Source: Caballeronia sp. SL2Y3
GTDB taxonomy: Bacteria > Pseudomonadota > Gammaproteobacteria > Burkholderiales > Burkholderiaceae
Direction: 5' to 3'
Length of the DNA stretch: 64,000 bases
Assembly (NCBI RefSeq): GCF_022879575.1
Contig: NZ_CP084263.1
Span: forward strand, 186,001 to 250,000
Numbering within the stretch: position 1 is the first letter of the stretch; each line of letters starts with the position of its first letter. Under the pieces are notes generated by a model, which saw only the letters and a program-made list of their open reading frames with translations, was not told the origin of the DNA and ran no database searches. The position numbers were made by a program, and so were the translations under genes. This document shows positions 4,941-14,842 of the stretch, one piece after another.

Positions 4941-5362
4941 GTTCGATAACTTGCGGGCGCACGATGCGGTCCAGCGAAGCCGCACAGAAGGTTTACGGCT
5001 GGATAAGACCAAATCTACAGGCCGGCGTTCGATCCTCTTTCGATATTTGCCGCCACCGGTTTGCCTATGGAGAACTCAATGAGCAATCTCCCGCGCGCTC
5101 TCACGTTTTGCGGCGTAGTGGAAAGCGCGAATCCACGCCGAAATATTTGTGTTCGATCAAGCGCCTGCCCCGGCAGACCGCTGTAGCATGGGTCCGAGAA
5201 CACCTGCCACCGGCGCGAGACACTTCACTGCGCCGCCCCTCGCCGTCCCTATACTTTCTTTTGCTGTAGAAGTCGACGCGTGGCGCACATTGGCCCGGTG
5301 CTTGCTTGTTTCGGCGCCACACTATCCGGCGAATCGACCGGCACTTGCACAAGGAGGAGACG
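4941..5362. other. Divergent intergenic region AraC regulator / sigma-54 activator
   Basis: About 420 bases without a supported gene. Toward its right end lies a sigma-54 promoter match (5291-5306, listed separately) and then the strong ribosome site AAGGAGGAGACG just before the activator start at 5363. I see no other convincing element. Confidence 0.45.
5291..5306 (+). promoter_or_regulatory. Sigma-54 (-24/-12) promoter for the activator gene
   Basis: TGGCCCG-GTGC-TTGCT matches the RpoN consensus TGGCACG-N4-TTGCW, with the essential GG (5292-5293) and GC (5304-5305) exactly ten bases apart. It lies 57 bases before the start of a sigma-54-dependent activator, suggesting that the activator is itself RpoN-transcribed and probably autoregulated. 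Confidence 0.7.
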
Positions 5363-7300
5363 ATGCAAGACGAGATCCGCGAGATCGCGGGCATCCCCGA
5401 TGAAAGGGAAAACGGTTGGCTCATCCCGGCGATCCGCAACGCCCATCAGCGATCGGAGACCTTCGGCCTCCACGCTTCCACGCGCCCCGACTACGACGTC
5501 CTCACCCGCGCCGACCTGCTGCTCAAGCTCGAGCAGAACCGCGTGCTATGCGCGCACGCGACGCCGGTCATGGAAAGCCTGCGGGAGCAGATCGTCAATA
5601 CGCAAAGCATGATCGTTCTCACGGACGCGCAAGGCCTGATCCTCCACTCCACCGGTGACGACGACTTCCTCGCGCGCGCCGAGAAGGTCGCGCTCAGAGC
5701 GGGAGCAAACTGGGCGGAGGAACGACAAGGCACGAATGCAATCGGCACCGCGATCGCCGAACGCTCGGCCACGGTCGTGCATGGCGACCAGCACTATCTC
5801 GCGGCCAACCGTTTCCTCACCTGTTCGAGCGTGCCGATCCTCGATCCATACGGTGATCTGATCGGCGTGCTCGACGTAACGGGCGATCATCGCAGCTACC
5901 ATCGACACACGATGGCGCTCGCGCGCATGTCGGTGCAGATGATCGAAAACCACCTGTTTTCCAGCACTTTTCAGGGCATGCTGCAGATTTCCTTCCACGG
6001 CCGGCCGGAATTTCTCGGCACGCTCATGGAAGGAATCATGGCGTTCAGCTTCGATGGCCGCTTCCTGTCGGCCAATCGCAGCGCACAATTCCAGTTCGGC
6101 CTGCCGCTGTCGGCGTTGCGCGCGCATACGCTTTCGTCGCTCTTCGGCCTGACGAGCGCGCAACTGATCGATCGTTCGCAAGCGAGCCGCGCGCCGCACA
6201 TTTCGCTCAACCTGAACAACGGCACCGTCGTCTGCGCGCGCGTGCGCCTCGACCGCGCGCCCTTCGCCGACGCGACGACGCCCGCCGCACGGCCTGCCCC
6301 GCGCGCGTTGGCTCCTTGCGAGCCGTCGTCCAGGCTCGCATCGCTCGAGACGGGCGATGCCAGAATCTCGGCCGTGATCGGCAAGGTGCGCAAGGTCATC
6401 GGCAAGGGTATCCCCATCCTCATCACCGGCGAAACGGGCACGGGCAAGGAACTCCTCGCGCAAGCCATTCACAGCGATTCGCCGCGTCGCGGGGGGCCGT
6501 TTATCGCGGTGAACTGCGCATCGATCCCGGAAAACCTGATCGAATCCGAGCTGTTCGGGTACGAGGAAGGCGCATTCACGGGCGCGCGGCGCAAAGGCGC
6601 GGCGGGCAAGGTGCTTCAGGCGAACGGCGGCACGCTTTTCCTGGATGAAATCGGCGACATGCCCTACCACTTGCAGGTGCGGCTGCTTCGCGTGCTCCAG
6701 GAGCGCGTGATCGATCCGCTCGGCTCAAGCAAGTCCATACCGGTGGACGTGGCGATCATTTGCGCGACGCACCGCAATCTGCGCGAGATGATCGCTCAGA
6801 ACACGTTCCGCGAAGACCTGTACTATCGGATCAACGGGCTCGTGGTCAAGCTGCCGCCCTTGCGCGAACGCACCGACCTCGCCGTCGTCATCACGAACAT
6901 GATGCGGACGTTGAGCGCCGAAGAAGCATGCAACACGCGTCTGTCCATCGATGACGACGTCTTGGCACTGTTCGAACGCTACGCGTGGCCGGGAAACTTC
7001 AGGCAGTTGTGCAACGTGTTGCGCACCGCCGCCGCGATGGTCGACGACGATGGCTGCATCCGCCGCGAGCATCTTCCCGAAGACTTCTTCGATGACCCGC
7101 GCGTCCCTACGCCAGCCGTCAGTGAAGCAAGCGTTTCATCGGCATTGGATGGTGAACGGCTCGAAGAGGTCACCGTGGCCGTCATTGCCGCGGCGCTCGC
7201 GCGTCATCATGGCAATGTGTCGGCCGCGGCGCGCGCGCTCGGGATCTCACGGAATACGATCTATCGCAAGATGCCCGGCTGTTCATCCATGGAGCAGTGA
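5363..7300 (+). CDS. Sigma-54-dependent AcoR-like transcriptional activator (GAF-AAA+-Fis)
   Basis: A 645-residue enhancer-binding protein. The ATG at 5363 is chosen because AAGGAGGAGACG immediately precedes it; an ORF extension to 5306 lacks this. A GAF-like sensory domain occupies roughly residues 60-200 ([21 protein letters not shown] is typical of AcoR proteins). The AAA+ domain has Walker A GETGTGKE near 356-363 and the sigma-54 contact loop GAFTGA at 403-408. A Fis-type helix-turn-helix ([20 protein letters not shown]) closes the protein. The genes after it (pqqA, quinoprotein alcohol dehydrogenase, aldehyde dehydrogenase) carry RpoN promoter matches, so this protein is the obvious activator of alcohol oxidation here. 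AcoR relatives respond to acetoin, alcohols or aldehydes; the effector is not shown by sequence. Confidence 0.95.
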
Positions 7301-7309
7301 ACTGTTGCC

Positions 7310-7352
7310 CGGGTGTTGCACTTTGGAGCACTCCGGTGCCGGAGCGTGTTGC
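7310..7352 (+). promoter_or_regulatory. Putative upstream activator element before pqqA
   Basis: The 19-base element CGGGTGTTGCACTTTGGAG (7310-7328) recurs with only two changes, on the opposite strand, at 7699-7717 before the alcohol dehydrogenase. A second GTGTTGC core lies at 7346-7352, and between them is the perfect palindrome CTCCGG-TG-CCGGAG (7331-7344). The cluster sits about 45-60 bases upstream of the RpoN promoter at 7371, where enhancer sites for the neighbouring activator are expected. The assignment to that activator is inference. Confidence 0.55.
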
Positions 7353-7370
7353 GCGCGATCTCTTTGTCGA

Positions 7371-7386
7371 AGGCATGGACCTTGCA
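7371..7386 (+). promoter_or_regulatory. Sigma-54 promoter for pqqA
   Basis: AGGCATG-GACC-TTGCA matches the RpoN consensus with GG (7372-7373) and GC (7384-7385) ten bases apart. It lies 61 bases before the pqqA start and downstream of the shared 19-base element. Confidence 0.65.
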
Positions 7387-7446
7387 CCTTTGAGCGCCGG
7401 TTGCGAAACGGTTCGCGACCGCTCACGCATCATTCAAGGAGACGCC

Positions 7447-7521
7447 ATGCAATGGACTAAACCCGCCTTCACCGATCTGCGCTTCGGCTTCGAAATCACG
7501 ATGTATATCGCCACGCGCTGA
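7447..7521 (+). CDS. pqqA: Coenzyme PQQ precursor peptide PqqA (stand-alone copy)
   Basis: A 24-residue ORF, too short for routine gene calling. It opens [14 protein letters not shown] and contains Glu16 and Tyr20 in the invariant E-x3-Y arrangement, the two side chains that PqqE cross-links to build pyrroloquinoline quinone. Length and surrounding residues (KPAF-DLR) match known PqqA peptides closely. AAGGAGACGCC directly precedes the ATG. No pqqB, C, D or E gene lies in the window, so this is a solo precursor gene that must use maturation enzymes encoded elsewhere. It sits 383 bases before a PQQ-dependent alcohol dehydrogenase, under its own RpoN promoter, which suggests extra precursor supply when alcohol oxidation is induced. 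Confidence 0.92.
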
Positions 7522-7531
7522 AGCCTCAATA

Positions 7532-7574
7532 AGCATATGTCCGGCTCGGAGCGGGATCGGTCCGGACATATGCT
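7532..7574. terminator. Perfect 13-bp stem-loop after pqqA
   Basis: AGCATATGTCCGG (7532-7544) is followed, after a 17-base loop, by its exact reverse complement (7562-7574). It begins ten bases after the pqqA stop codon. There is no T tract, so it may act as an mRNA 3' stabiliser or partial terminator. A hairpin behind pqqA is known in classical pqq operons and gives an excess of the short pqqA transcript. Confidence 0.65.
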
Positions 7575-7677
7575 CCTCCTCCACTATTCCCTCCACATTA
7601 TGTAGGGGTCCGAAGTCTTCAGCGACCCTGAGACGCGACGCGCCTTGTAACGACTGATCGTGCCACTGCCCCATCCG

Positions 7678-7717
7678 GCAACACTCGACGTCCCACTACT
7701 CCACATTGCAACACCCG
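7678..7717 (-). promoter_or_regulatory. Inverted copies of the putative activator element before the alcohol dehydrogenase
   Basis: On the minus strand, 7717-7699 reads CGGGTGTTGCAATGTGGAG, 17 of 19 bases identical to the element before pqqA. A second GTGTTGC core, also inverted, lies at 7684-7678, 30 bases away. The sites are about 90-125 bases upstream of the RpoN promoter at 7804, a normal distance for a sigma-54 enhancer. Confidence 0.55.
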
Positions 7718-7803
7718 TGCATCCATGCGCTGCGGCATGAGCTCGAGTTGCATCGACCGCCGCGTCCGCATGGGGCAAGCCTGTCAGGCGCTTCCTCGAT
7801 CAA

Positions 7804-7819
7804 TGGCACGTGAGTTGCC
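7804..7819 (+). promoter_or_regulatory. Sigma-54 promoter for the alcohol dehydrogenase
   Basis: TGGCACG-TGAG-TTGCC is a nearly perfect RpoN site with GG (7805-7806) and GC (7817-7818) ten bases apart. It stands 101 bases before the quinoprotein dehydrogenase start codon. Confidence 0.8.
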
Positions 7820-7904
7820 TTGACGATGCGGCAACCGTTTCGCGTGTCTATCGTTATCGGACACGCAAGAGAGAAGACGTTGCATTCATATCCAGGAGAC
7901 GACG

Positions 7905-9644
7905 ATGAAGACTCGACCAGTCCCGGCGATGCGCTTGGCGGCCCTTGCAGCAGGGGCCGCGGTGACATTCGCTTTTGCACAGCATCAGGCCATCGCGGCG
8001 GATGGCACGCCGGCGCAATACTCCGATGTCACTTATGAACGCCTGACAAGCGCGCAGGACGACCCGGGCTGGCTCACGTACTACCGCACCTACAACGGTC
8101 ATGCTCACTCTCCGCTCAAGCAGATCGACACACGCAACGTCAAGGACCTGAAGCAGGCATGGAGCTACAAGTTTCCCGCTGAGCTGCAGCAGGGTTTCGA
8201 AGCGACGCCCATCGTCAACGGGCGCTTTATGTTCGTGACGACGCCCAAGGACAACGTCTACGCATTCGATGCCGCGACGGGCAAGCAGCTTTGGAAGTAC
8301 GAGCCGCAACTCGACGCCAAGTCGTTCAAGACCGCCTGTTGCGACGTGGTGAATCGCGGGGTCGCGCTCTACGGAAAGAACGTCTACGTCGCGATGCTGA
8401 ACGGCGAAGTGGCCGCGCTCGATGCACAAACCGGCGCACTCGTATGGAAGAAGGCCATGTTCGATCCGGGCATGGGCTACGCATTCTCGCTTGCGCCGCT
8501 CGCCCTCGACGGCGCACTCGTCGTCGGCAGTTCGGGCGGCGAGTACGGCGCGCGCGGTTTCATCGCAGCGCTCGATCCCAACGATGGCAAGTTGCTGTGG
8601 AAGCGCTTCACGGTGCCCGGCGCGAAGGAGCCGGGCGGCGACACGTGGCCCGATGGCATGCAGGAACATGGCGGCGCGCCCGCATGGCTCACCGGCACCT
8701 ACGACGCGGCAAGCAAGACGCTCTACTGGGGCGTGGGCAATCCCGGGCCGTGGCTTGCCGACCTGCGGCCCGGCGATAACCTGTATTCGGATTCACTGCT
8801 CGCGCTCGATCCGAAGACGGGCGATCTCAAGTGGCATTATCAGTACACGACGCATGATACGTGGGACTACGACGGCGTGAACACGCCGGTGCTCGCCAAC
8901 GTCAAGTATCAGGGCAAGGACTACGACGCGATCATTCATGCGGACCGCAACGGCTTCTTCCATGCCATTGATCGCAGCAACGGCAAGCTGATCTACGCGC
9001 GGCCGTTCGTGAAGGCCACATCGGTCACGGGCTATACCGCTGATGGCAAACCGGTGCAGGATGCCGCGAAATACCCGAAAACAGGCACGACCATCGAGAC
9101 GTGTCCCAGCTTCCTTGGCGGCAAGAACTGGTGGTCCGTGTCGTACGATCCCGAGACACACCTTGCCATCGTGCCCGCGCTGCATGCGTGCATGTCCTTG
9201 TCCGGCAAGTCGGTGAACTACATGGAAGGCCTGCCCTATCTCGGAGAAGGCTTCGAGATCAAGCCTGAGCCTGGCAGCAAGGGCTATGGCGAACTGCAGG
9301 CGATCGACGTCGATACCGGCAAGAAGGTGTGGAGCTATTGGACCAAGCTGCCATGGAACGGCGGCGTGGCGACCACGGCGGGCGGCCTTGCGTTCAGCGG
9401 CTCGCTCGACGGCCACTTGCTTGCGTTCGACGAAAAGACGGGCAAGGTTCTGTGGAAGAGCCCGAAGCTCGCGAGCGGCATCATCGCGCAGCCTTCGGTG
9501 TATGAGATCGACGGCAAGGAATATGTCGCCATTCTCGCGGGCTACGGCGGCGCCAATCCGATCTGGGGCGGTCCGATGGCCAAGGTCGCCGACAAGGTGC
9601 CGCGCGGCGGCACGCTCTATGTGTTCGCGCTCAATCGTACGTGA
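7905..9644 (+). CDS. PQQ-dependent alcohol dehydrogenase, predicted lanthanide type
   Basis: A 579-residue periplasmic quinoprotein that oxidises primary alcohols to aldehydes. A signal peptide ends near AIAADG (residue 33). Tryptophan-rich beta-propeller repeats (for example TGKQLWKY, DGKLLWKR, TGKVLWKS) run through the chain. The vicinal disulfide Cys145-Cys146 that stacks on PQQ is present. Likely metal ligands are Glu213 (GGEYG), Asn279 (GNPGPW) and the catalytic base Asp321. Asp323 lies two residues on, in THDTWDYDGVN; this extra Asp is the marker of lanthanide-dependent XoxF/PedH enzymes, where calcium enzymes have Ala or Ser. A good ribosome site (CAGGAGACGACG) precedes the ATG. The cytochrome fusion follows 85 bases later and is probably the electron acceptor. 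Metal dependence and substrate are inferred. Confidence 0.94.
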   Translation: MKTRPVPAMRLAALAAGAAVTFAFAQHQAIAADGTPAQYSDVTYERLTSAQDDPGWLTYYRTYNGHAHSPLKQIDTRNVKDLKQAWSYKFPAELQQGFEATPIVNGRFMFVTTPKDNVYAFDAATGKQLWKYEPQLDAKSFKTACCDVVNRGVALYGKNVYVAMLNGEVAALDAQTGALVWKKAMFDPGMGYAFSLAPLALDGALVVGSSGGEYGARGFIAALDPNDGKLLWKRFTVPGAKEPGGDTWPDGMQEHGGAPAWLTGTYDAASKTLYWGVGNPGPWLADLRPGDNLYSDSLLALDPKTGDLKWHYQYTTHDTWDYDGVNTPVLANVKYQGKDYDAIIHADRNGFFHAIDRSNGKLIYARPFVKATSVTGYTADGKPVQDAAKYPKTGTTIETCPSFLGGKNWWSVSYDPETHLAIVPALHACMSLSGKSVNYMEGLPYLGEGFEIKPEPGSKGYGELQAIDVDTGKKVWSYWTKLPWNGGVATTAGGLAFSGSLDGHLLAFDEKTGKVLWKSPKLASGIIAQPSVYEIDGKEYVAILAGYGGANPIWGGPMAKVADKVPRGGTLYVFALNRT

Positions 9645-9729
9645 AGCGCACCTGAACCGCTGATCGGACCGCAGGGCGCCACGTCTTTCGCGCGCTCTGC
9701 GGCGCTCTCATACCACCGGACGTCTGGCC

Positions 9730-10941
9730 ATGACTCATTCACTCCACACCTTTCGCGCGGCGGGGATGCTCGCGGCATTCATCGCGCTCGCTCCTTCCGT
9801 GTCCCATCCCACGGTAAAAATCTGCACGTTTCCCGGTAGTCCGTCTGCGTCTCTGGATCGCGCCGTCGCACAAGCGGTCTTCGCGCGCGCCAACATTCCG
9901 ATCGAGTTCGTCCATGGTATCGGCGAAGGCGATGACGACGGCGTTTCGCTCAGGGAACTCGACAAGCTGCTCACTCGCGATTGCGACGTGATCGCAGGCT
10001 TCCCGCGTTCGACGGTCGCCGATGCTTCCGGCGGCAAAATGCGCTTTTCCAGCGGTTATCTGCGTGCGGGATATGTGAGCGTCGAGGCGCCCGGCACCGT
10101 GTTACAGGGCGCAGCGAAGCGCACCGTCGCGGCCACGTATGCGAGTCCAGCGCAACTTATCGCCGTGCAGCAGAAGGACGTGACGCTCGATCTCGAGAAT
10201 AGCTGCGCATCGACGGTCGACGCAGTGGCGACCGGACGCGCGCGAAAGGCCATCGTGTGGTATCCGGCCGTCGTCGCTTATCGCCTGATGCATCCGCAGC
10301 GCAGCTTCGATATCGCGCTCGCCGACTCGCCGTATGCGCAATGGCAGCTCTCTTTCGCGTTCGGCGCCAGGGCCGCTGCATCGCGCCCGCTGATCGACGA
10401 AACGCTCTCGGCCATGCGCAAGGATGGCGCGCTTCAGGCGCTGACGAAGCAGTGGACCTTGCCCGTGCAAACGACATCGACCGGTTATCTCGACAAGCCG
10501 TCGACGGCATCGCCTTCAGTCGGGGGCATCATGCTCGCGAACGCGAACGCCTCGCGCATGGGCCGCAACATCAAGGTTTCGAACGAAGTCGGCGCAGAGC
10601 CGCCATCATTCGAACAGGCTCAGACCTCGCACGGAAAGACGCTATATGGAAGCTCGTGCGCGAAGTGCCACGGCGCGCAACTTCAGGGGGTGACGGCGCC
10701 CGCATTGCAGGGGCCGTCGTTTGCACCGCCGGCGAATTCGCATCTGACGGTCGGCGGAATATTCACCTACATGGCGACCAACATGCCCGCCGATCGCCCG
10801 GGCAAGATGAAGGATCAGGACTATGCGGACATCATGGCGTTCCTGCTCATGTCGAACGGATACAAGCCAGGCCCGACCAAGATGACCGCCGACATTGCAC
10901 GTGCCTCGAAGCTGCCGCTGAACGCGGGGCCTGGTCATTGA
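9730..10941 (+). CDS. Fusion of XoxJ-like periplasmic binding domain and XoxG-like cytochrome c
   Basis: A 403-residue exported protein. After a short signal sequence, residues ~28-245 form a periplasmic binding-protein fold of the MoxJ/XoxJ kind (VKICTFPGSPSASLDRAVA at the start, QLSFAFG and ALTKQW near the end). A Ser/Thr/Pro-containing linker (~246-290) leads to a class I cytochrome c domain with heme motif CAKCH (310-314) and the probable axial Met352 in MATNMP. In methylotrophs, XoxJ and XoxG are separate proteins that serve the lanthanide methanol dehydrogenase XoxF, as a maturation/activation partner and an electron acceptor. Here both functions are on one chain directly behind a XoxF-like enzyme. 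The reading frame is continuous and a strong hairpin follows the stop. I do not know of a characterised fusion. Confidence 0.85.
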   Translation: MTHSLHTFRAAGMLAAFIALAPSVSHPTVKICTFPGSPSASLDRAVAQAVFARANIPIEFVHGIGEGDDDGVSLRELDKLLTRDCDVIAGFPRSTVADASGGKMRFSSGYLRAGYVSVEAPGTVLQGAAKRTVAATYASPAQLIAVQQKDVTLDLENSCASTVDAVATGRARKAIVWYPAVVAYRLMHPQRSFDIALADSPYAQWQLSFAFGARAAASRPLIDETLSAMRKDGALQALTKQWTLPVQTTSTGYLDKPSTASPSVGGIMLANANASRMGRNIKVSNEVGAEPPSFEQAQTSHGKTLYGSSCAKCHGAQLQGVTAPALQGPSFAPPANSHLTVGGIFTYMATNMPADRPGKMKDQDYADIMAFLLMSNGYKPGPTKMTADIARASKLPLNAGPGH

Positions 10942-10960
10942 TTCGGCCTCGGCGGACGTG

Positions 10961-10994
10961 CACCGCGCGCCTTCGATCTCGAAGGGGCGCGGTG
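10961..10994. terminator. Stem-loop terminator after the cytochrome fusion
   Basis: CACCGCGC (10961-10968) pairs with GCGCGGTG (10987-10994), and inside it CCTTCG pairs with CGAAGG around the tetraloop ATCT, with one G-G mismatch. It starts 20 bases after the stop codon. There is no long T tract, but the stem is very stable and separates the dehydrogenase/cytochrome unit from the aldehyde dehydrogenase. Confidence 0.7.
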
Positions 10995-11454
10995 AATCGA
11001 CAGCGCTTGCAGCCACGCGGCTACGGTCCGTGAGCTGCCCTCATACTGTTCCCACACCGCCTGCGCTCTGTTCCATCGACTCCGCGATCGGCGCCGCGAA
11101 TGCGGCAAGGCGTGTGACTTTCGCGTCACGCATCGTCACCGCGTACCAACACCAGGCGGCAGGCAAGAGCTTGGCTCAACGTGGGTATCCCCACCCTTCC
11201 ATCGTATCGGCGCTACGCGCCCGCTCTAAGCGTTCACGCCAAGACCCCGATTCACGAGTGCTACAGCACGATACACCTGTCGCGAATATGAACAGCCGCC
11301 GCCTGCGCCCGCAACGCACGGTCTCGCCCAAACCCACGCTGCGCATGACGATGCCGCGCGCGCGGTCAATGGCATGGAACTCGCAATGTACTGGCAGCGG
11401 CGGCGCGCATCGCCAGCGCTGGACCGCTTCTATCGACATGCGAGGAGCACACAG
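10995..11454. other. Intergenic leader of the aldehyde dehydrogenase
   Basis: About 460 bases without a supported gene. It holds a small palindrome GTGCT-AC-AGCAC near 11258-11269 and, at its right end, a sigma-54-like promoter (11370-11385). I did not find the 19-base element seen before pqqA and the alcohol dehydrogenase. Confidence 0.4.
11370..11385 (+). promoter_or_regulatory. Sigma-54-like promoter for the aldehyde dehydrogenase
   Basis: TGGCATG-GAAC-TCGCA keeps the essential GG and GC at ten-base spacing (GG 11371-11372, GC 11383-11384) with one deviation (TC for TT). It lies 70 bases before the start codon and would place the aldehyde dehydrogenase in the same RpoN regulon. Confidence 0.5.
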
Positions 11455-12975
11455 ATGAACCATGCGGAGATGCAGTTCCTGAGCACCGACTATCCGTACA
11501 AGAAGCAGTATGGAAATTTCATCGGCGGCAAGTGGGTGCCGCCCGTCGGCGGCGAATACTTCGACGACATCTCGCCTATCACAGGCGAGCCGTTCACCTC
11601 CATTCCACGTTCGCGCGAAGCGGACATCGAAGCCGCCCTCGATGCGGCTCATGCCGCGAAGGCATCGTGGGGCAAGACGTCCACAACGGACCGGGCCAAT
11701 GTGCTGATGAAGATAGCGGATCGCATGGAAGCGAACCTCGCGCGGCTCGCGGTAGCCGAATCGATCGACAACGGCAAGCCGCTGCGCGAGACGATGGCGG
11801 CCGATATTCCGCTCGCCATCGATCATTTCCGCTATTTCGCGAGCGCCGCCCGCGCGCAGGAAGGCTCCATTTCGCAGATCGACGAGGACACCGTCGCGTA
11901 TCACTTCCATGAACCGCTCGGCGTCGTCGGTCAGATCATCCCGTGGAACTTCCCCATCTTGATGGCCGTATGGAAGCTCGCGCCCGCGCTTGCGGCCGGG
12001 AACTGTGTGGTGCTGAAGCCCGCGGAACAGACGCCCGCGTCGCTGCTCGTGCTGCTCGAGGCCATTCAAGACTTGTTGCCGCCGGGCGTGGTGAACGTGG
12101 TCAACGGCTTCGGGCTCGAAGCCGGCAAGCCACTCGCATCGAACAAGCGCATCGCGAAGATCGCGTTCACCGGCGAAACGACGACAGGGCGCCTCATCAT
12201 GCAGTACGCCAGCCAGAATCTGATACCCGTGACACTGGAACTCGGCGGCAAGAGCCCGAATATCTTCTTTGCCGACGTGCTCAATGCAGACGACAGCTTC
12301 TTCGACAAGGCGCTCGAAGGCTTCGCGATGTTCGCGCTCAACCAGGGCGAAGTGTGTACGTGCCCATCGCGTGCGCTGATCGAAGAGTCCATCTACGAGC
12401 GCTTCATGGAGCGCGCGCTCAAGCGTGTCGCGGCAATCACGCAAGGGCATCCGCTGGACACGAAGACGATGATCGGCGCGCAGGCCTCGCAGGAGCAGCT
12501 CGAAAAGATTCTGGCTTACATCGACCTCGGCAAGCAGGAAGGCGCGGACTGTCTCATCGGCGGCGAACGCAATGCGCTCGAAGGCGAGCTTGCCAAAGGC
12601 TTCTACGTGAAGCCGACAGTATTTCGCGGCCACAACAAGATGCGCATCTTTCAGGAAGAGATCTTCGGACCGGTGCTGTCGGTGACGACATTCAAAAACG
12701 AAGAAGAGGCGCTCGCCATTGCGAACGACACGCTCTATGGCCTCGGAGCAGGCGTCTGGACGCGCGACGGCACGCGGGCGTATCGCTTCGGGCGCGCAAT
12801 CCAGGCGGGCCGCGTATGGACCAACTGCTATCACGCGTATCCGGCGCACGCGGCGTTCGGCGGCTACAAGCAATCGGGCATCGGGCGCGAGAACCACAAG
12901 ATGATGCTCGATCACTACCAGCAGACGAAGAACCTGCTCGTGAGCTATAGCGAAAAGCCGCTTGGTTTCTTCTAA
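11455..12975 (+). CDS. NAD-dependent aldehyde dehydrogenase (ExaC/AcoD-like)
   Basis: A 506-residue cytoplasmic aldehyde dehydrogenase that would oxidise the aldehyde produced by the quinoprotein to the acid. The ATG at 11455 follows GAGGAGCACACAG; the frame is open to 11374 without a better site. The NAD-binding segment ([20 protein letters not shown]), the glutamate motif LELGGKSPN and the catalytic Cys301 (GEVCTCPSR) are all present. [15 protein letters not shown] and the C-terminal PLGFF ending are typical of acetaldehyde dehydrogenases AcoD/ExaC, which accompany alcohol and acetoin catabolism under AcoR-type control. Length is normal. The truncated ABC permease sequence starts immediately after the stop codon, hinting at a rearrangement junction. 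Confidence 0.95.
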
Positions 12976-13649
12976 CCTTCGAGCGCGCGGAGCCGCCGCA
13001 ATGGCGCGCATTCGTCGACGCCTGGCATGGCCGTCTTCAGGGCGGCCTGCCGCTCTCCGACCATCTGCTCTGGAGCGCGATCCGCGTGTTCGGCGCGTTC
13101 GCGCTGGCGGTCGTCACGGCCGTGCCCGTCGGCATCGCGATGGGCGTGAGCCGCATTGCGCGCGGGGTGCTGGACCCGCCGCTGGAGTTCTATCGGCCGC
13201 TGCCGCCGCTCGCGTATCTGCCGCTCGTCGTCATCTGGTTCGGCATCGACGAGACCGCGAAGATTGTCGTCATCTGGCTCGCGTGCTTCGCGCCCATCGC
13301 GATGGCCGCGCGTGCCGGCGTGCGCAGCGCGAGCGCCGAGCAGGTCAACGCGGCGTGGTCGCTCGGCGCGAACTTCCGGCAGGTGGTGTGGCACGTCGTA
13401 TTGCCCGCGGCGCTGCCTGAAATATTGACGGGCTTGCGCATCGCCGTGGGCTTTGGCTGGACGACGCTCGTTGCGGCCGAGATGGTCGCCGCCACGGCCG
13501 GCCTCGGTCAGATGGTGCTCAATGCGTCGAGCTTTCTGCGCACGGACGTGGTCGTCATGGGAATCATGCTGATCGGAGCGATTGCGTGGATCTTCGACTA
13601 CGGCATGCGCGCGCTGGAACGGCGGCTCGTGCCGTGGAAGGGGCGTTGA
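12976..13649 (+). pseudogene. 5'-truncated ABC transporter permease (taurine/sulfonate TauC type)
   Basis: The frame ending at 13649 encodes the last ~220 residues of a TauC-like permease. It has the EAA loop region (AAWSLGANFRQVVWHVVLPAALPEILTGLR) and the C-terminal LERRLVPWKGR, and lines up with TauC from about residue 50 onward. Homology can be read back in frame to FERAEPPQWRAFVDAWHG, right behind the aldehyde dehydrogenase stop codon. The first ~50 residues with the first membrane helix, and any start codon with a ribosome site, are missing; a GTG at 13086 would give 187 residues starting mid-helix. No ATPase or binding-protein partner is adjacent. I read it as a deletion remnant, not a working gene. 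Confidence 0.75.
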
Positions 13650-13741
13650 AGGTCTCGCCTGCAGGCGCATGCCGCGGTCGCGCATGCCCAAGCGGCACGC
13701 GTGTTGCTTCCCGGCGATGCTGAAAGCCGCTGGAGGTAGCC

Positions 13742-14842
13742 ATGAAACGCATATCGGCGCAGCAGGAGCTTCAAAGCAGCGCCCGCTCGATCGTGCAACC
13801 ATTGGCCGCGAGACTGGGCGCGCGAAGCTATCTGTATTTCGAACTCGGTGCAACGCCAGCCAAAGACCTGACGATCTCGGTCCGGTATCGTCCGCCCGAA
13901 GAGGTCGTGCTGTCGGAATATGGCGAACGGTTCTATGAAGACGATCCGTTGACGCGGCCCTTCCGCTCGTGGCTGCAAGGAGAAGGGACAACGGTTCCCG
14001 AACCGCTTGTCGTCGCACTGCGCGAACTGCCGCAACTTGCGAAGACGAGCTACGAGACGCGCTTTCTCCACCGCGCACGAATCTACGACGTCATCGGCCT
14101 CGGGATACCGATGTCGCTTGCTGGCGCGCGCAAGGTCGTTTGCTTCGGCATGCATAGACGTGCGACGGAACCGTGGTTCACTGCGTCCGAAGCGAAGACG
14201 CTGCGGCGCGCCGCGACCGCGCTGCGCGTGAACGCAGAGAACCTCGCGCTTCGCGAGCAACTCGCACTGCGCGACCGGGTTACGGATGCTTTCTCGCGCA
14301 GCGGTTCGCACAACTGGATACTGTTCGACTCGCACTTGCGCGTGCGTGACATGAGAGGAGACGCGCTATGCCGGTCAGGCGCGCGTTCAACGATCGTCGA
14401 GCGCATACGAGCGCAGCTCGAAGCATGTCGCTGCGCCAGGGACAGCCATACGCGTTCGATCAGCCTGCGCGTTCATTTAGGCGTGGAAGAAGACGCTGCC
14501 GCAACGCTTGCCGCCCGGGAAATCGCAGGCGAAGGAGGCGAGCGATGGTGGCTCGTCCACACCGACACGGCCCCCCGCTCAATCACAAGCAGGGGCTTCG
14601 ATTCATTCTTCGACGCCGCAGGACTCACAGCGCGCGAGCGAGAAGTGGCTCGCGTAGTCGCCGAGGGCGCAAGTAATGCGGCCGTCGCGAGAGCCCTCGG
14701 CATCTCGGTGCTCACGGTTGAAAACCACCTGCGATCGGTGTACGGCAAACTCGGCGTTTCGAGCCGCCTGCAAATGCTTCGCGCGATGCACGATGCCTCC
14801 CCTACCTCAACTCCCGAGCGAAGCCACGCAAGTCGTCAATGA
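13742..14842 (+). CDS. LuxR-family transcriptional regulator
   Basis: A 366-residue protein with GGAGGTAGCC just before the ATG. The C-terminal LuxR helix-turn-helix is clear: LTAREREVARVVAEGASNAA followed by VARALGISVLTVENHLRSVY (about residues 297-345). The N-terminal ~250 residues have no motif I can name; a GAF- or PAS-like sensor is likely. There is no receiver aspartate pattern at the N terminus, so it is not an ordinary response regulator. Its last 41 bases overlap the end of the convergent epoxide hydrolase gene. It may control that gene or the alcohol module upstream (LuxR-type regulators control ethanol oxidation in pseudomonads), but neither is shown. Confidence 0.85.
   Translation: MKRISAQQELQSSARSIVQPLAARLGARSYLYFELGATPAKDLTISVRYRPPEEVVLSEYGERFYEDDPLTRPFRSWLQGEGTTVPEPLVVALRELPQLAKTSYETRFLHRARIYDVIGLGIPMSLAGARKVVCFGMHRRATEPWFTASEAKTLRRAATALRVNAENLALREQLALRDRVTDAFSRSGSHNWILFDSHLRVRDMRGDALCRSGARSTIVERIRAQLEACRCARDSHTRSISLRVHLGVEEDAAATLAAREIAGEGGERWWLVHTDTAPRSITSRGFDSFFDAAGLTAREREVARVVAEGASNAAVARALGISVLTVENHLRSVYGKLGVSSRLQMLRAMHDASPTSTPERSHASRQ

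What the first reader, a model, noticed from the sequence alone, without database searches (positions are those of the whole stretch)
5291..12975. Sigma-54 regulon for alcohol oxidation with its own pqqA
An AcoR-like activator, a stand-alone pqqA, a quinoprotein alcohol dehydrogenase and an aldehyde dehydrogenase are all preceded by GG-N10-GC promoter matches (5291, 7371, 7804, 11370). The alcohol oxidation route and the precursor of its own cofactor thus appear wired to one activator. Known lanthanide switches use two-component or LuxR-type regulators; sigma-54 control of a lanthanide-type enzyme together with a solo PqqA precursor is unfamiliar to me.
Basis: partly seen in the sequence, partly recalled or inferred. 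Interest (0 to 1): 0.75.

Follow-up and report, generated by a model that had tools for sequence, protein, structure and literature searches.

The report
Sigma-54 regulon pairing alcohol oxidation, pqqA
In this Caballeronia-like soil bacterium and its Burkholderia relatives, one activator protein probably switches on an alcohol-burning enzyme, the enzyme that removes its toxic aldehyde product, and the small peptide from which the enzyme's own cofactor is made, so that enzyme and cofactor supply rise together.

Summary
The four sites (5291, 7371, 7804, 11370) rank 5th, 1st, 2nd and 3rd of 127,970 window positions. They are conserved: in front of the alcohol dehydrogenase in 79 of 80 named Burkholderia-group loci (the last has it further upstream), of pqqA in 57 of 57 loci where it was found, of acoR in 53 of 56 measurable, of exaC in 30 of 30 fetched. 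A palindrome, TGTTSC-N5-GSAACA, lies upstream of the dehydrogenase (77 of 79), pqqA (54 of 57) and linked exaC (13 of 14), but rarely of acoR (2 of 53) or a control gene (5 of 79). acoR and dehydrogenase orthologues share the same 28 of 58 genomes. So three of four promoters look wired to AcoR; acoR itself probably has another activator. The enzyme has the lanthanide-ligand residues. The parts have precedents: sigma-54 exaA in Azospirillum, AcoR-ExaC in Ralstonia, orphan pqqA in methylotrophs. A pqqA sharing its client enzyme's enhancer did not turn up in my paper searches. Expression and binding are untested.

The parts
5291..5306 (+). sigma-54 promoter element of acoR (TGGCCCGGTGCTTGCT)
   Evidence: rank 5 of 127,970 in the window; a site scoring 10 or more in 53 of 56 measurable named loci
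5363..7300 (+). AcoR-like sigma-54 activator: GAF, AAA+ with GAFTGA loop, Fis-type HTH; no receiver domain listed
   Evidence: Pfam PF01590, PF00158, PF02954; GAFTGA in the translation
7280..7296 (.). second enhancer-like site of pqqA, TGTTCATCCATGGAGCA, overlapping the end of acoR
   Evidence: 10 of 12 consensus positions
7314..7330 (.). enhancer palindrome upstream of pqqA, TGTTGCACTTTGGAGCA
   Evidence: 11 of 12 positions; one of 13 places in the genome at one mismatch or fewer, reversed control 7
7371..7386 (+). sigma-54 promoter element of pqqA (AGGCATGGACCTTGCA)
   Evidence: rank 1 in the window; a site scoring 10 or more in 57 of 57 named loci where pqqA was found, 12 or more in 38
7447..7521 (+). 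pqq[25 protein letters not shown], stand-alone
   Evidence: TIGR02107 and PF08042 over cut-off
7532..7574 (+). hairpin just after pqqA, possible transcript end (not flagged by the terminator scan)
   Evidence: -25.1 kcal/mol for 7519-7600, z -2.24, 5 of 200 shuffles as good
7667..7683 (.). distal enhancer palindrome of the dehydrogenase, TGCCCCATCCGGCAACA
   Evidence: conserved block about 120 nt before the -24 box
7697..7713 (.). proximal enhancer palindrome of the dehydrogenase, TACTCCACATTGCAACA
   Evidence: 89 nt before the -24 box in window and L048-L067
7804..7819 (+). sigma-54 promoter element of the dehydrogenase (TGGCACGTGAGTTGCC)
   Evidence: rank 2 in the window; 79 of 80 named loci within 250 nt, the 80th at 359 nt
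7905..9644 (+). PQQ alcohol dehydrogenase, lanthanide-type ligand set E213, N279, D321, D323
   Evidence: TIGR03075 over cut-off; best solved relative 6zcw, 430 bits (that 6zcw is PedH is recalled); ligand set in 80 of 80 named loci
9730..10941 (+). periplasmic binding-protein-like N-terminus fused to cytochrome c, likely electron acceptor (inferred)
   Evidence: PF13442/PF00034 at 298-373; weak binding-protein match at 93-242, E 0.008
11258..11294 (.). two weak enhancer-like sites upstream of exaC (TGCTACAGCACGATACA and TGTCGCGAATATGAACA)
   Evidence: second scores 10 of 12; 24 of 30 genus exaC loci have a site of 10 or more
11370..11385 (+). sigma-54 promoter element of exaC (TGGCATGGAACTCGCA)
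   Evidence: rank 3 in the window; site in 30 of 30 fetched genus exaC loci
11455..12975 (+). ExaC-type acetaldehyde dehydrogenase
   Evidence: NF050026 946 bits, cut-off 900
13693..13708 (+). fifth sigma-54-like site, 33 nt before a LuxR-type gene (13742-14842); membership doubtful
   Evidence: rank 4 in the window; gene not found in L048/L049

Best explanation
This is a sigma-54 regulon for oxidation of ethanol or similar short alcohols. The AcoR-like activator (probably sensing the alcohol, acetaldehyde or a related product through its GAF domain: inferred) binds paired TGTTSC-N5-GSAACA enhancers some 40-160 nt upstream of the -24/-12 promoters of pqqA, of the periplasmic PQQ alcohol dehydrogenase with its cytochrome, and of exaC, and drives RNA polymerase-sigma-54 there. 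PqqA is consumed one-for-one as substrate for PQQ, so a private pqqA raises cofactor supply in step with the apoenzyme, while the PQQ-making enzymes (one pqqE found, elsewhere in the genome) act catalytically. The dehydrogenase very likely uses a lanthanide. Shown by sequence: genes, promoter elements, enhancer motif, conservation, co-inheritance. Inferred: binding, signal, sigma-54 dependence, metal, and the supply role of pqqA. acoR's own sigma-54 promoter lacks the shared enhancer and is probably fired by another activator.
For: The four sites rank 5, 1, 2 and 3 of 127,970. Conservation in unaligned best-site scans: genus loci plus window, ADH 28 of 28, acoR 25 of 25 rows with a full gene, pqqA 27 of 28, ALDH 4 of 4 where linked. 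Named loci at score 10 or more: ADH 79 of 80, pqqA 57 of 57, acoR 53 of 56, ALDH 14 of 15, control cytochrome gene 1 of 79; at 12 or more: 79, 38, 52, 13 and 1. The sites stay with their genes where the cluster is rearranged (L068-L074). Enhancer (10 or more of 12 positions): ADH 77 of 79, pqqA 54 of 57, ALDH 13 of 14, acoR 2 of 53, control 5 of 79, shuffles 1.4%; outside Caballeronia 59 of 61, 37 of 39, 12 of 13, 1 of 37 and 5 of 61. acoR and ADH orthologues in the same 28 of 58 genomes. pqqA: 67 cluster copies taken by position, no stop, E-x3-Y in 67 of 67; variable sites 9, 9 and 20 of 24 at codon positions 1, 2 and 3. The sigma-70-type scan found 2 sites in 5000-13800, neither upstream of these genes. 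Two rpoN genes, one pqqE over cut-off, three pqqA in the genome.
Against: No expression or binding data. The palindrome was defined on Caballeronia ADH promoters, so their score is partly circular; the non-Caballeronia, pqqA and ALDH counts are less so. One search left out rows without a site of 10 or more and rows with too short upstream sequence (1 ADH, 3 acoR, 1 ALDH of the measurable ones). exaC has its promoter in genomes without this acoR, and 21 of the 28 cluster genomes also have the other AcoR, so another AcoR can serve it. In the window the exaC enhancers are weak (10 of 12 at best). acoR's promoter lacks the motif. The plain consensus scan shows no excess. Genome-wide, single motifs are only mildly enriched: TGGCAYRNNNNTTGC 15 against 9 for the reversed control, the palindrome at one mismatch 13 against 7. 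pqqA was found in 57 of the 80 named loci; several of the other 23 end near the place where it would lie, and the rest were not followed.
Confidence: 0.83

Rival explanations
1. The sigma-54 promoters are real, but they answer to more than one activator: AcoR drives pqqA and the dehydrogenase, while exaC and acoR itself answer to an AcoR paralogue or a global activator, so it is a network and not one regulon.
For: acoR's promoter lacks the shared enhancer (2 of 53); all 18 exaC-bearing genomes without the cluster have a 62-67% AcoR paralogue, beside exaC in 13 genomes in all.
Against: The window's genome has no such paralogue (one hit at E<=1e-150); the only other AcoR-like protein I compared is the 42% one on C2. 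exaC has enhancer-like sites (24 of 30 at 10 or more).
Confidence: 0.35
2. The private pqqA is not for PQQ supply but has another role (for instance the peptide or extra PQQ as a metal binder), or is a redundant copy kept by hitch-hiking.
For: Two further pqqA copies exist; for the orphan pqqA genes of Methylorubrum a part in lanthanide uptake is suggested (PMC11317620, passages).
Against: The sequence keeps the E-x3-Y core in 67 of 67 copies and matches TIGR02107; it shares the client enzyme's enhancer. PqqA availability is reported as rate-determining in Methylovorus (Ge 2015, as cited in PMC11317620).
Confidence: 0.1
3. The GG-N10-GC matches are chance and sigma-70 promoters drive the genes.
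For: Plain consensus scan shows no excess over the window.
Against: Conservation of -24/-12 with variable spacers and flanks, specificity against the control gene, and no sigma-70-type site found upstream.
Confidence: 0.03

Closest known systems
Azospirillum brasilense exaA (Singh 2017; not held, seen only as cited in PMC6115532 and PMC12826043 passages)
   Same: Quinoprotein alcohol dehydrogenase expressed through sigma-54; pqqA and exaA fusions both induced by glycerol and fructose (PMC12826043)
   Different: Activator is LuxR-type and not an AcoR-type enhancer-binding protein; the pqqA result concerns RpoE6, and no shared enhancer is described in what I read
Ralstonia solanacearum AcoR (Rsc3129)-ExaC (PMC4676750, passages)
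   Same: AcoR homologue predicted to control acetaldehyde dehydrogenase ExaC by sigma-54; rpoN1 needed for growth on ethanol
   Different: No PQQ dehydrogenase or pqqA there ('PQQ' and 'alcohol dehydrogenase' have no occurrence in the main text)
Pseudomonas putida ped cluster, PedS2/PedR2 and PedR1/AgmR (PMC6115532, PMC12997753, PMC13390443, passages)
   Same: PedH (recalled as PDB 6zcw) is the nearest solved relative of the dehydrogenase; an ExaC-type ALDH belongs to the route
   Different: LuxR-type response regulators, a Ca/Ln enzyme pair, pqq operon co-regulated elsewhere; no local pqqA under a shared enhancer in what I read
Orphan pqqA copies in Methylorubrum and Methylovorus (PMC11317620, PMC9851590, passages)
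   Same: Extra stand-alone pqqA genes with their own expression; PqqA supply can limit PQQ
   Different: In what I read, not shown to sit on the activator of a client dehydrogenase
Burkholderia symbiosis-associated region (PMC9088363, passages)
   Same: PQQ genes, PQQ-ADH, pqqA and a sigma-54 Fis-type regulator in one region; a region that looks like it is on C2 of this genome
   Different: Different contig, a paralogous activator (42% identity) and a C1 pathway; not the window cluster

Membership tests
AcoR-type sigma-54 regulon | Activator with GAF sensor, AAA+ domain with GAFTGA loop, Fis-type HTH, no receiver domain | tested here: met
   PF01590, PF00158, PF02954; no receiver family among the 9 Pfam families listed; GAFTGA in the sequence
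AcoR-type sigma-54 regulon | -24/-12 promoters at target genes | tested here: met
AcoR-type sigma-54 regulon | Common enhancer upstream of targets | tested here: met
   met for ADH, pqqA and ALDH; not met for acoR itself
AcoR-type sigma-54 regulon | Transcription dependent on rpoN and the activator | not testable with these tools
   two rpoN genes present; no expression data
Lanthanide-dependent PQQ alcohol dehydrogenase (PedH/ExaF type) | Glu, Asn, Asp and the extra Asp two residues on (role recalled from the literature) | tested here: met
   E, N, D, D in 80 of 80 named loci and in the window
Lanthanide-dependent PQQ alcohol dehydrogenase (PedH/ExaF type) | Activity with lanthanides and not with calcium | not testable with these tools
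   no assay
Lanthanide switch (Ca/Ln enzyme pair with PedS2/PedR2-like control) | Calcium-type partner enzyme in the same genome | tested here: not met
   the two other methanol/ethanol-type PQQ dehydrogenases among the hits (L076, L080) also carry the extra Asp; the more distant PQQ proteins were not checked
PqqA precursor peptide | Family match with E-x3-Y core | tested here: met
   TIGR02107 47.6 bits against 20; PF08042 45.6 against 21.1; core in 67 of 67 cluster copies
PqqA precursor peptide | Is processed to PQQ | not testable with these tools
   one pqqE over cut-off elsewhere in the genome

The most novel reading that the evidence does not exclude
PQQ supply in Burkholderia and kin is set by which pqqA gene is switched on. 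Each alcohol-oxidation module has its own sigma-54 activator and its own pqqA, while the shared PQQ-making enzymes are left free-running. The window carries the module for higher alcohols, and the C2 region of the same genome carries a second one with an AcoR paralogue, an XoxF-like enzyme and a pqqA behind a strong site (in own genome and the 3 relatives, of 30 loci fetched, that have pqqA at that spot; the other 26 have none there, and their pqqA genes elsewhere were not tested). Enzyme and ribosomal cofactor precursor would thus be co-dosed by one enhancer-binding protein, a logic not described for PQQ in the papers I searched.
Probability: 0.4. Interest if true: 0.72.

Novelty: new variant of a known kind. 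Interest (0 to 1): 0.55.

Why it matters
PQQ is a ribosomal peptide-derived cofactor consumed one PqqA per PQQ, and how bacteria match it to apoenzyme is open; orphan pqqA genes are a known puzzle. Here an orphan pqqA shares promoter type and enhancer with its likely client enzyme in Burkholderia, Paraburkholderia and Caballeronia loci, which makes the supply hypothesis directly testable in easily grown strains. It also suggests control of a lanthanide-type enzyme by AcoR and sigma-54, and gives a clean enhancer motif for predicting such regulons.

Tried and rejected
Plain consensus scan was not informative: 113 hits, 125.5 expected. Whether the LuxR gene at 13742 with the site at 13693 belongs: not found in L048/L049, left as doubtful. 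Whether acoR is autoregulated by the same enhancer: no sign of it (2 of 53). By eye, a palindrome TTTGCAT-N5-ATGCCAA is seen upstream of acoR in many Caballeronia loci but not in the window, and I saw no common motif in three other groups (the output was cut). Whether the linkage reaches beyond Burkholderia sensu lato: I fetched one place each from 20 of the 38 other order-level genomes with a hit (about 38-47% identity). Of these 20, 8 have a site scoring 13.9 or more within 300 nt (random stretches at 12.5 or more: 2.4%), 6 of the 8 with an AcoR-like gene near; 3 more have an AcoR-like gene but no such site at the dehydrogenase. The only pqqA within these loci (L187) has no site. So sigma-54 control is wider than the pqqA link. 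The palindrome is not general there: best scores upstream of the 8 dehydrogenases are 8-11 of 12, 10 or more in 2. The third pqqA of the genome (C2:443161) has no convincing site (best 6.0). rpoN transcriptome papers: a P. phymatum table (PMC5979394, passages, header not seen) lists formylmethanofuran dehydrogenase A at -3.5, which would bear on the C2 region and not on this cluster; the terms I looked for gave nothing on this cluster in PMC5748707, PMC12316311 and PMC5491218. No structure was predicted, and the search for homologous proteins was not used.

Errors of mine: searches used pqqA one base out of frame (its empty family result there is void; corrected). In later scripts pqqA is labelled 'rosterKO'. 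One search dropped L048, L049, L050 and L066 from the pqqA rows by a too narrow pattern; and one search have them. In one search the best pqqA site of L070 was at 159 nt; the conserved one is; L120, the same genome, behaves alike. One search demanded the FGFEITMY core when collecting pqqA (57 copies); one search repeats it without that demand (67 copies, 57 with the exact core). L075 (G026) is a broken copy and was left out of the site counts. The one control hit is L095, where the matched cytochrome gene lies away from the dehydrogenase.


Full report
What is in the window. The window is 64 kb of a 5.5 Mb, five-contig genome (G000:C4:186001-250000). The nearest named hits are Caballeronia: in the plasmid collection the dehydrogenase is 96.9% identical in Caballeronia sp. 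M1242. The genes, all on the + strand, are an AcoR-like activator (5363-7300), pqqA (7447-7521), a PQQ alcohol dehydrogenase (7905-9644), a binding-protein/cytochrome c fusion (9730-10941) and an ExaC-type aldehyde dehydrogenase (11455-12975). The dehydrogenase is above the cut-off of the methanol/ethanol PQQ family, and its best solved relative by sequence is 6zcw (430 bits), labelled quinoprotein ethanol dehydrogenase in the listing and identified from recall as P. putida PedH. ExaC is above its equivalog cut-off. pqqA is 24 codons long, ends in a stop and is followed by a hairpin (z -2.24; no terminator was flagged there), so it looks stand-alone.

Promoter elements. A plain scan with up to three mismatches finds no excess over the window, so the raw observation alone is weak. 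With a weighted matrix (recalled, approximate weights) the four rank 5, 1, 2 and 3 of 127,970 positions; rank 4 is 13693, in front of a LuxR-type gene.

Conservation in the genus. Of 57 other genomes of the genus, 27 carry an orthologue of the dehydrogenase (81-96% identity). I fetched these 27 loci and one broken copy. The best-scoring site in the upstream region, chosen without alignment, was the expected element in front of the dehydrogenase in 28 of 28 rows (window included) and in front of acoR in 25 of 25 rows with a full gene. It was also in front of pqqA in 27 of 28 (L070's best was elsewhere, but its conserved site is) and of exaC in 4 of 4 linked cases. The GG, GC and neighbouring bases are conserved while the spacer and flanks vary (where rows were chosen by a pattern that demands the core). 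In L068-L074 the cluster is split or inverted, and the elements stay with their genes.

Conservation beyond the genus. A scan of named genomes kept the best 80 of 251 loci; 62 are outside Caballeronia, mostly Paraburkholderia and Burkholderia, one a Ralstonia-labelled metagenome bin. Within 250 nt, at score 10 or more, the site is in front of the dehydrogenase in 79 of 80 (the exception, L101, has TGGCATGCGACTTGCC at 359 nt), of pqqA in 57 of 57 loci where pqqA was found, of acoR in 53 of 56 measurable and of exaC in 14 of 15 measurable. It is in front of the cytochrome gene that follows the dehydrogenase, the control, in 1 of 79. At 12 or more the numbers are 79, 38, 52, 13 and 1. In the genus exaC has the site in 30 of 30 fetched loci; 44 of 58 genomes have exaC.

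Enhancers. Upstream of the dehydrogenase two blocks are conserved at 89 and about 120 nt before the -24 box. They and the pqqA upstream region share a palindrome, TGTTSC-N5-GSAACA. At 10 or more of 12 positions it is found upstream of the dehydrogenase in 77 of 79 loci, of pqqA in 54 of 57 and of linked exaC in 13 of 14, but of acoR in 2 of 53 and of the control gene in 5 of 79; shuffled sequence gives 1.4% (rows without a promoter site or with short upstream sequence were left out). The consensus came from Caballeronia dehydrogenase promoters, so the non-Caballeronia counts are the fairer ones: 59 of 61, 37 of 39, 12 of 13, against 1 of 37 and 5 of 61. Thus three of the four promoters share an enhancer. 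acoR's own promoter does not, and what fires it is open.

Co-inheritance. The acoR orthologue (72% identity or more) and the dehydrogenase orthologue (81% or more) occur in the same 28 of 58 genomes. These include G014 and G053, where acoR lies on another contig. In G026 both are broken and no pqqA is found. A more distant AcoR (62-67%) is present in all 18 exaC-bearing genomes without the cluster and in 21 of the 28 with it; it lies beside exaC in 13 genomes, and all 44 genomes with exaC have one AcoR or the other. The window's genome has no such paralogue. So AcoR-exaC is the older link, and this AcoR probably took exaC over in the window's clade (inference).

Cofactor side. The genome has three pqqA genes and one pqqE over cut-off, on C2; pqqB, C and D beside it were recognised only from their translations. 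Of 67 cluster pqqA copies taken by position none has a stop, all keep E-x3-Y and 57 the exact FGFEITMY core; variable sites by codon position are 9, 9 and 20 of 24. PqqA is consumed in making PQQ (established knowledge), and PqqA availability is reported as rate-determining in Methylovorus (Ge 2015, as cited in PMC11317620). A private pqqA on the enhancer of the client enzyme therefore most simply couples cofactor supply to enzyme level. PMC9088363 (passages) calls the roughly 100-bp pqqA of Burkholderia a degraded fragment. The copies read here encode the full short peptide by family match, so that reading looks mistaken.

Metal. Glu213, Asn279, Asp321 and Asp323 align with 6zcw, and the set is intact in 80 of 80 named loci. 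The other two methanol/ethanol-type enzymes found in this genome also have the extra Asp, so no calcium-type partner was found and a Ca/Ln switch of the ped kind is not expected. Metal use itself was not tested.

Wider picture. Of 20 more distant Burkholderiales dehydrogenases (from 20 of 38 genomes with a hit), 8 have a strong sigma-54 site upstream and 6 of these an AcoR-like gene near, but none has a pqqA with a site. So sigma-54/AcoR control of PQQ dehydrogenases looks broader than Burkholderia sensu lato, while the pqqA link was seen only there. On C2 a region like the published symbiosis-associated region holds an AcoR paralogue (42%), a pqqA behind TGGCATGGCGCTTGCG, C1 genes and pqqE. 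Of 30 loci fetched, 4 (own genome and 3 relatives) have pqqA at that place, all 4 with a strong site; 26 have none there.

What is known. Sigma-54 control of a quinoprotein alcohol dehydrogenase is reported in A. brasilense with a LuxR-type regulator (not held; seen as cited). An AcoR homologue predicted to control ExaC and rpoN1-dependent ethanol growth are reported in R. solanacearum (passages). The ped cluster uses LuxR-type regulators (passages). Orphan pqqA genes are known (passages). My ten paper searches turned up no description of a pqqA sharing a sigma-54 enhancer with its dehydrogenase; of their hits I looked into 14 papers by passages or term look-ups and saw the others as listings. 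The library is open-access only, so this is not proof of absence.

Verdict. It is a new variant of a known kind: known parts in a combination that appears undescribed and is easy to test. The mended counts did not change my odds.

Noticed in passing
L077:3698-7988, L078, L076 (own genome C2:1098000-1137000): A second sigma-54-like module: AcoR paralogue (42%), pqqA with TGGCATGGCGCTTGCG 85 nt upstream, a site CGGCATAGACCTTGCA in front of an fhcB-like gene, XoxF-like dehydrogenase with a weak site (11.6), and pqqE with pqqBCD-like genes; resembles the published insect-symbiosis-associated region.
   Followed up: partly
window 9730-10941: Binding-protein-like domain fused to cytochrome c (J-G order); from recall, the known cytochrome cGJ fusion of Methylacidiphilum has the opposite order.
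   Followed up: partly
window 13693-14842: Strong sigma-54-like site 33 nt before a LuxR-type regulator next to a transporter permease; not found in the loci of the two nearest relatives.
   Followed up: partly
own genome C1:804399-804413 (- strand): TGGCATAGGTGTTGC lies about 84 nt upstream of the second rpoN match (C1:802864-804315), which may be under sigma-54 control itself.
   Followed up: no
L050-L067, upstream of acoR: Palindrome TTTGCAT-N5-ATGCCAA seen by eye upstream of acoR in many Caballeronia loci, not in the window; possible site of the unknown acoR activator.
   Followed up: partly
L075 (G026, a 3.7 Mb genome): Joint decay: acoR and dehydrogenase are broken into pieces and no pqqA is found in that genome.
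   Followed up: no
PMC9088363: Calls the short pqqA of Burkholderia a degraded fragment; the 24-codon gene seen here is a complete PqqA by family match, so that statement is probably a misreading.
   Followed up: partly
window 7730-7800: A further conserved block (CCGCATG..GCAAGG) between enhancers and -24 box of the dehydrogenase in relatives, of unknown role.
   Followed up: no
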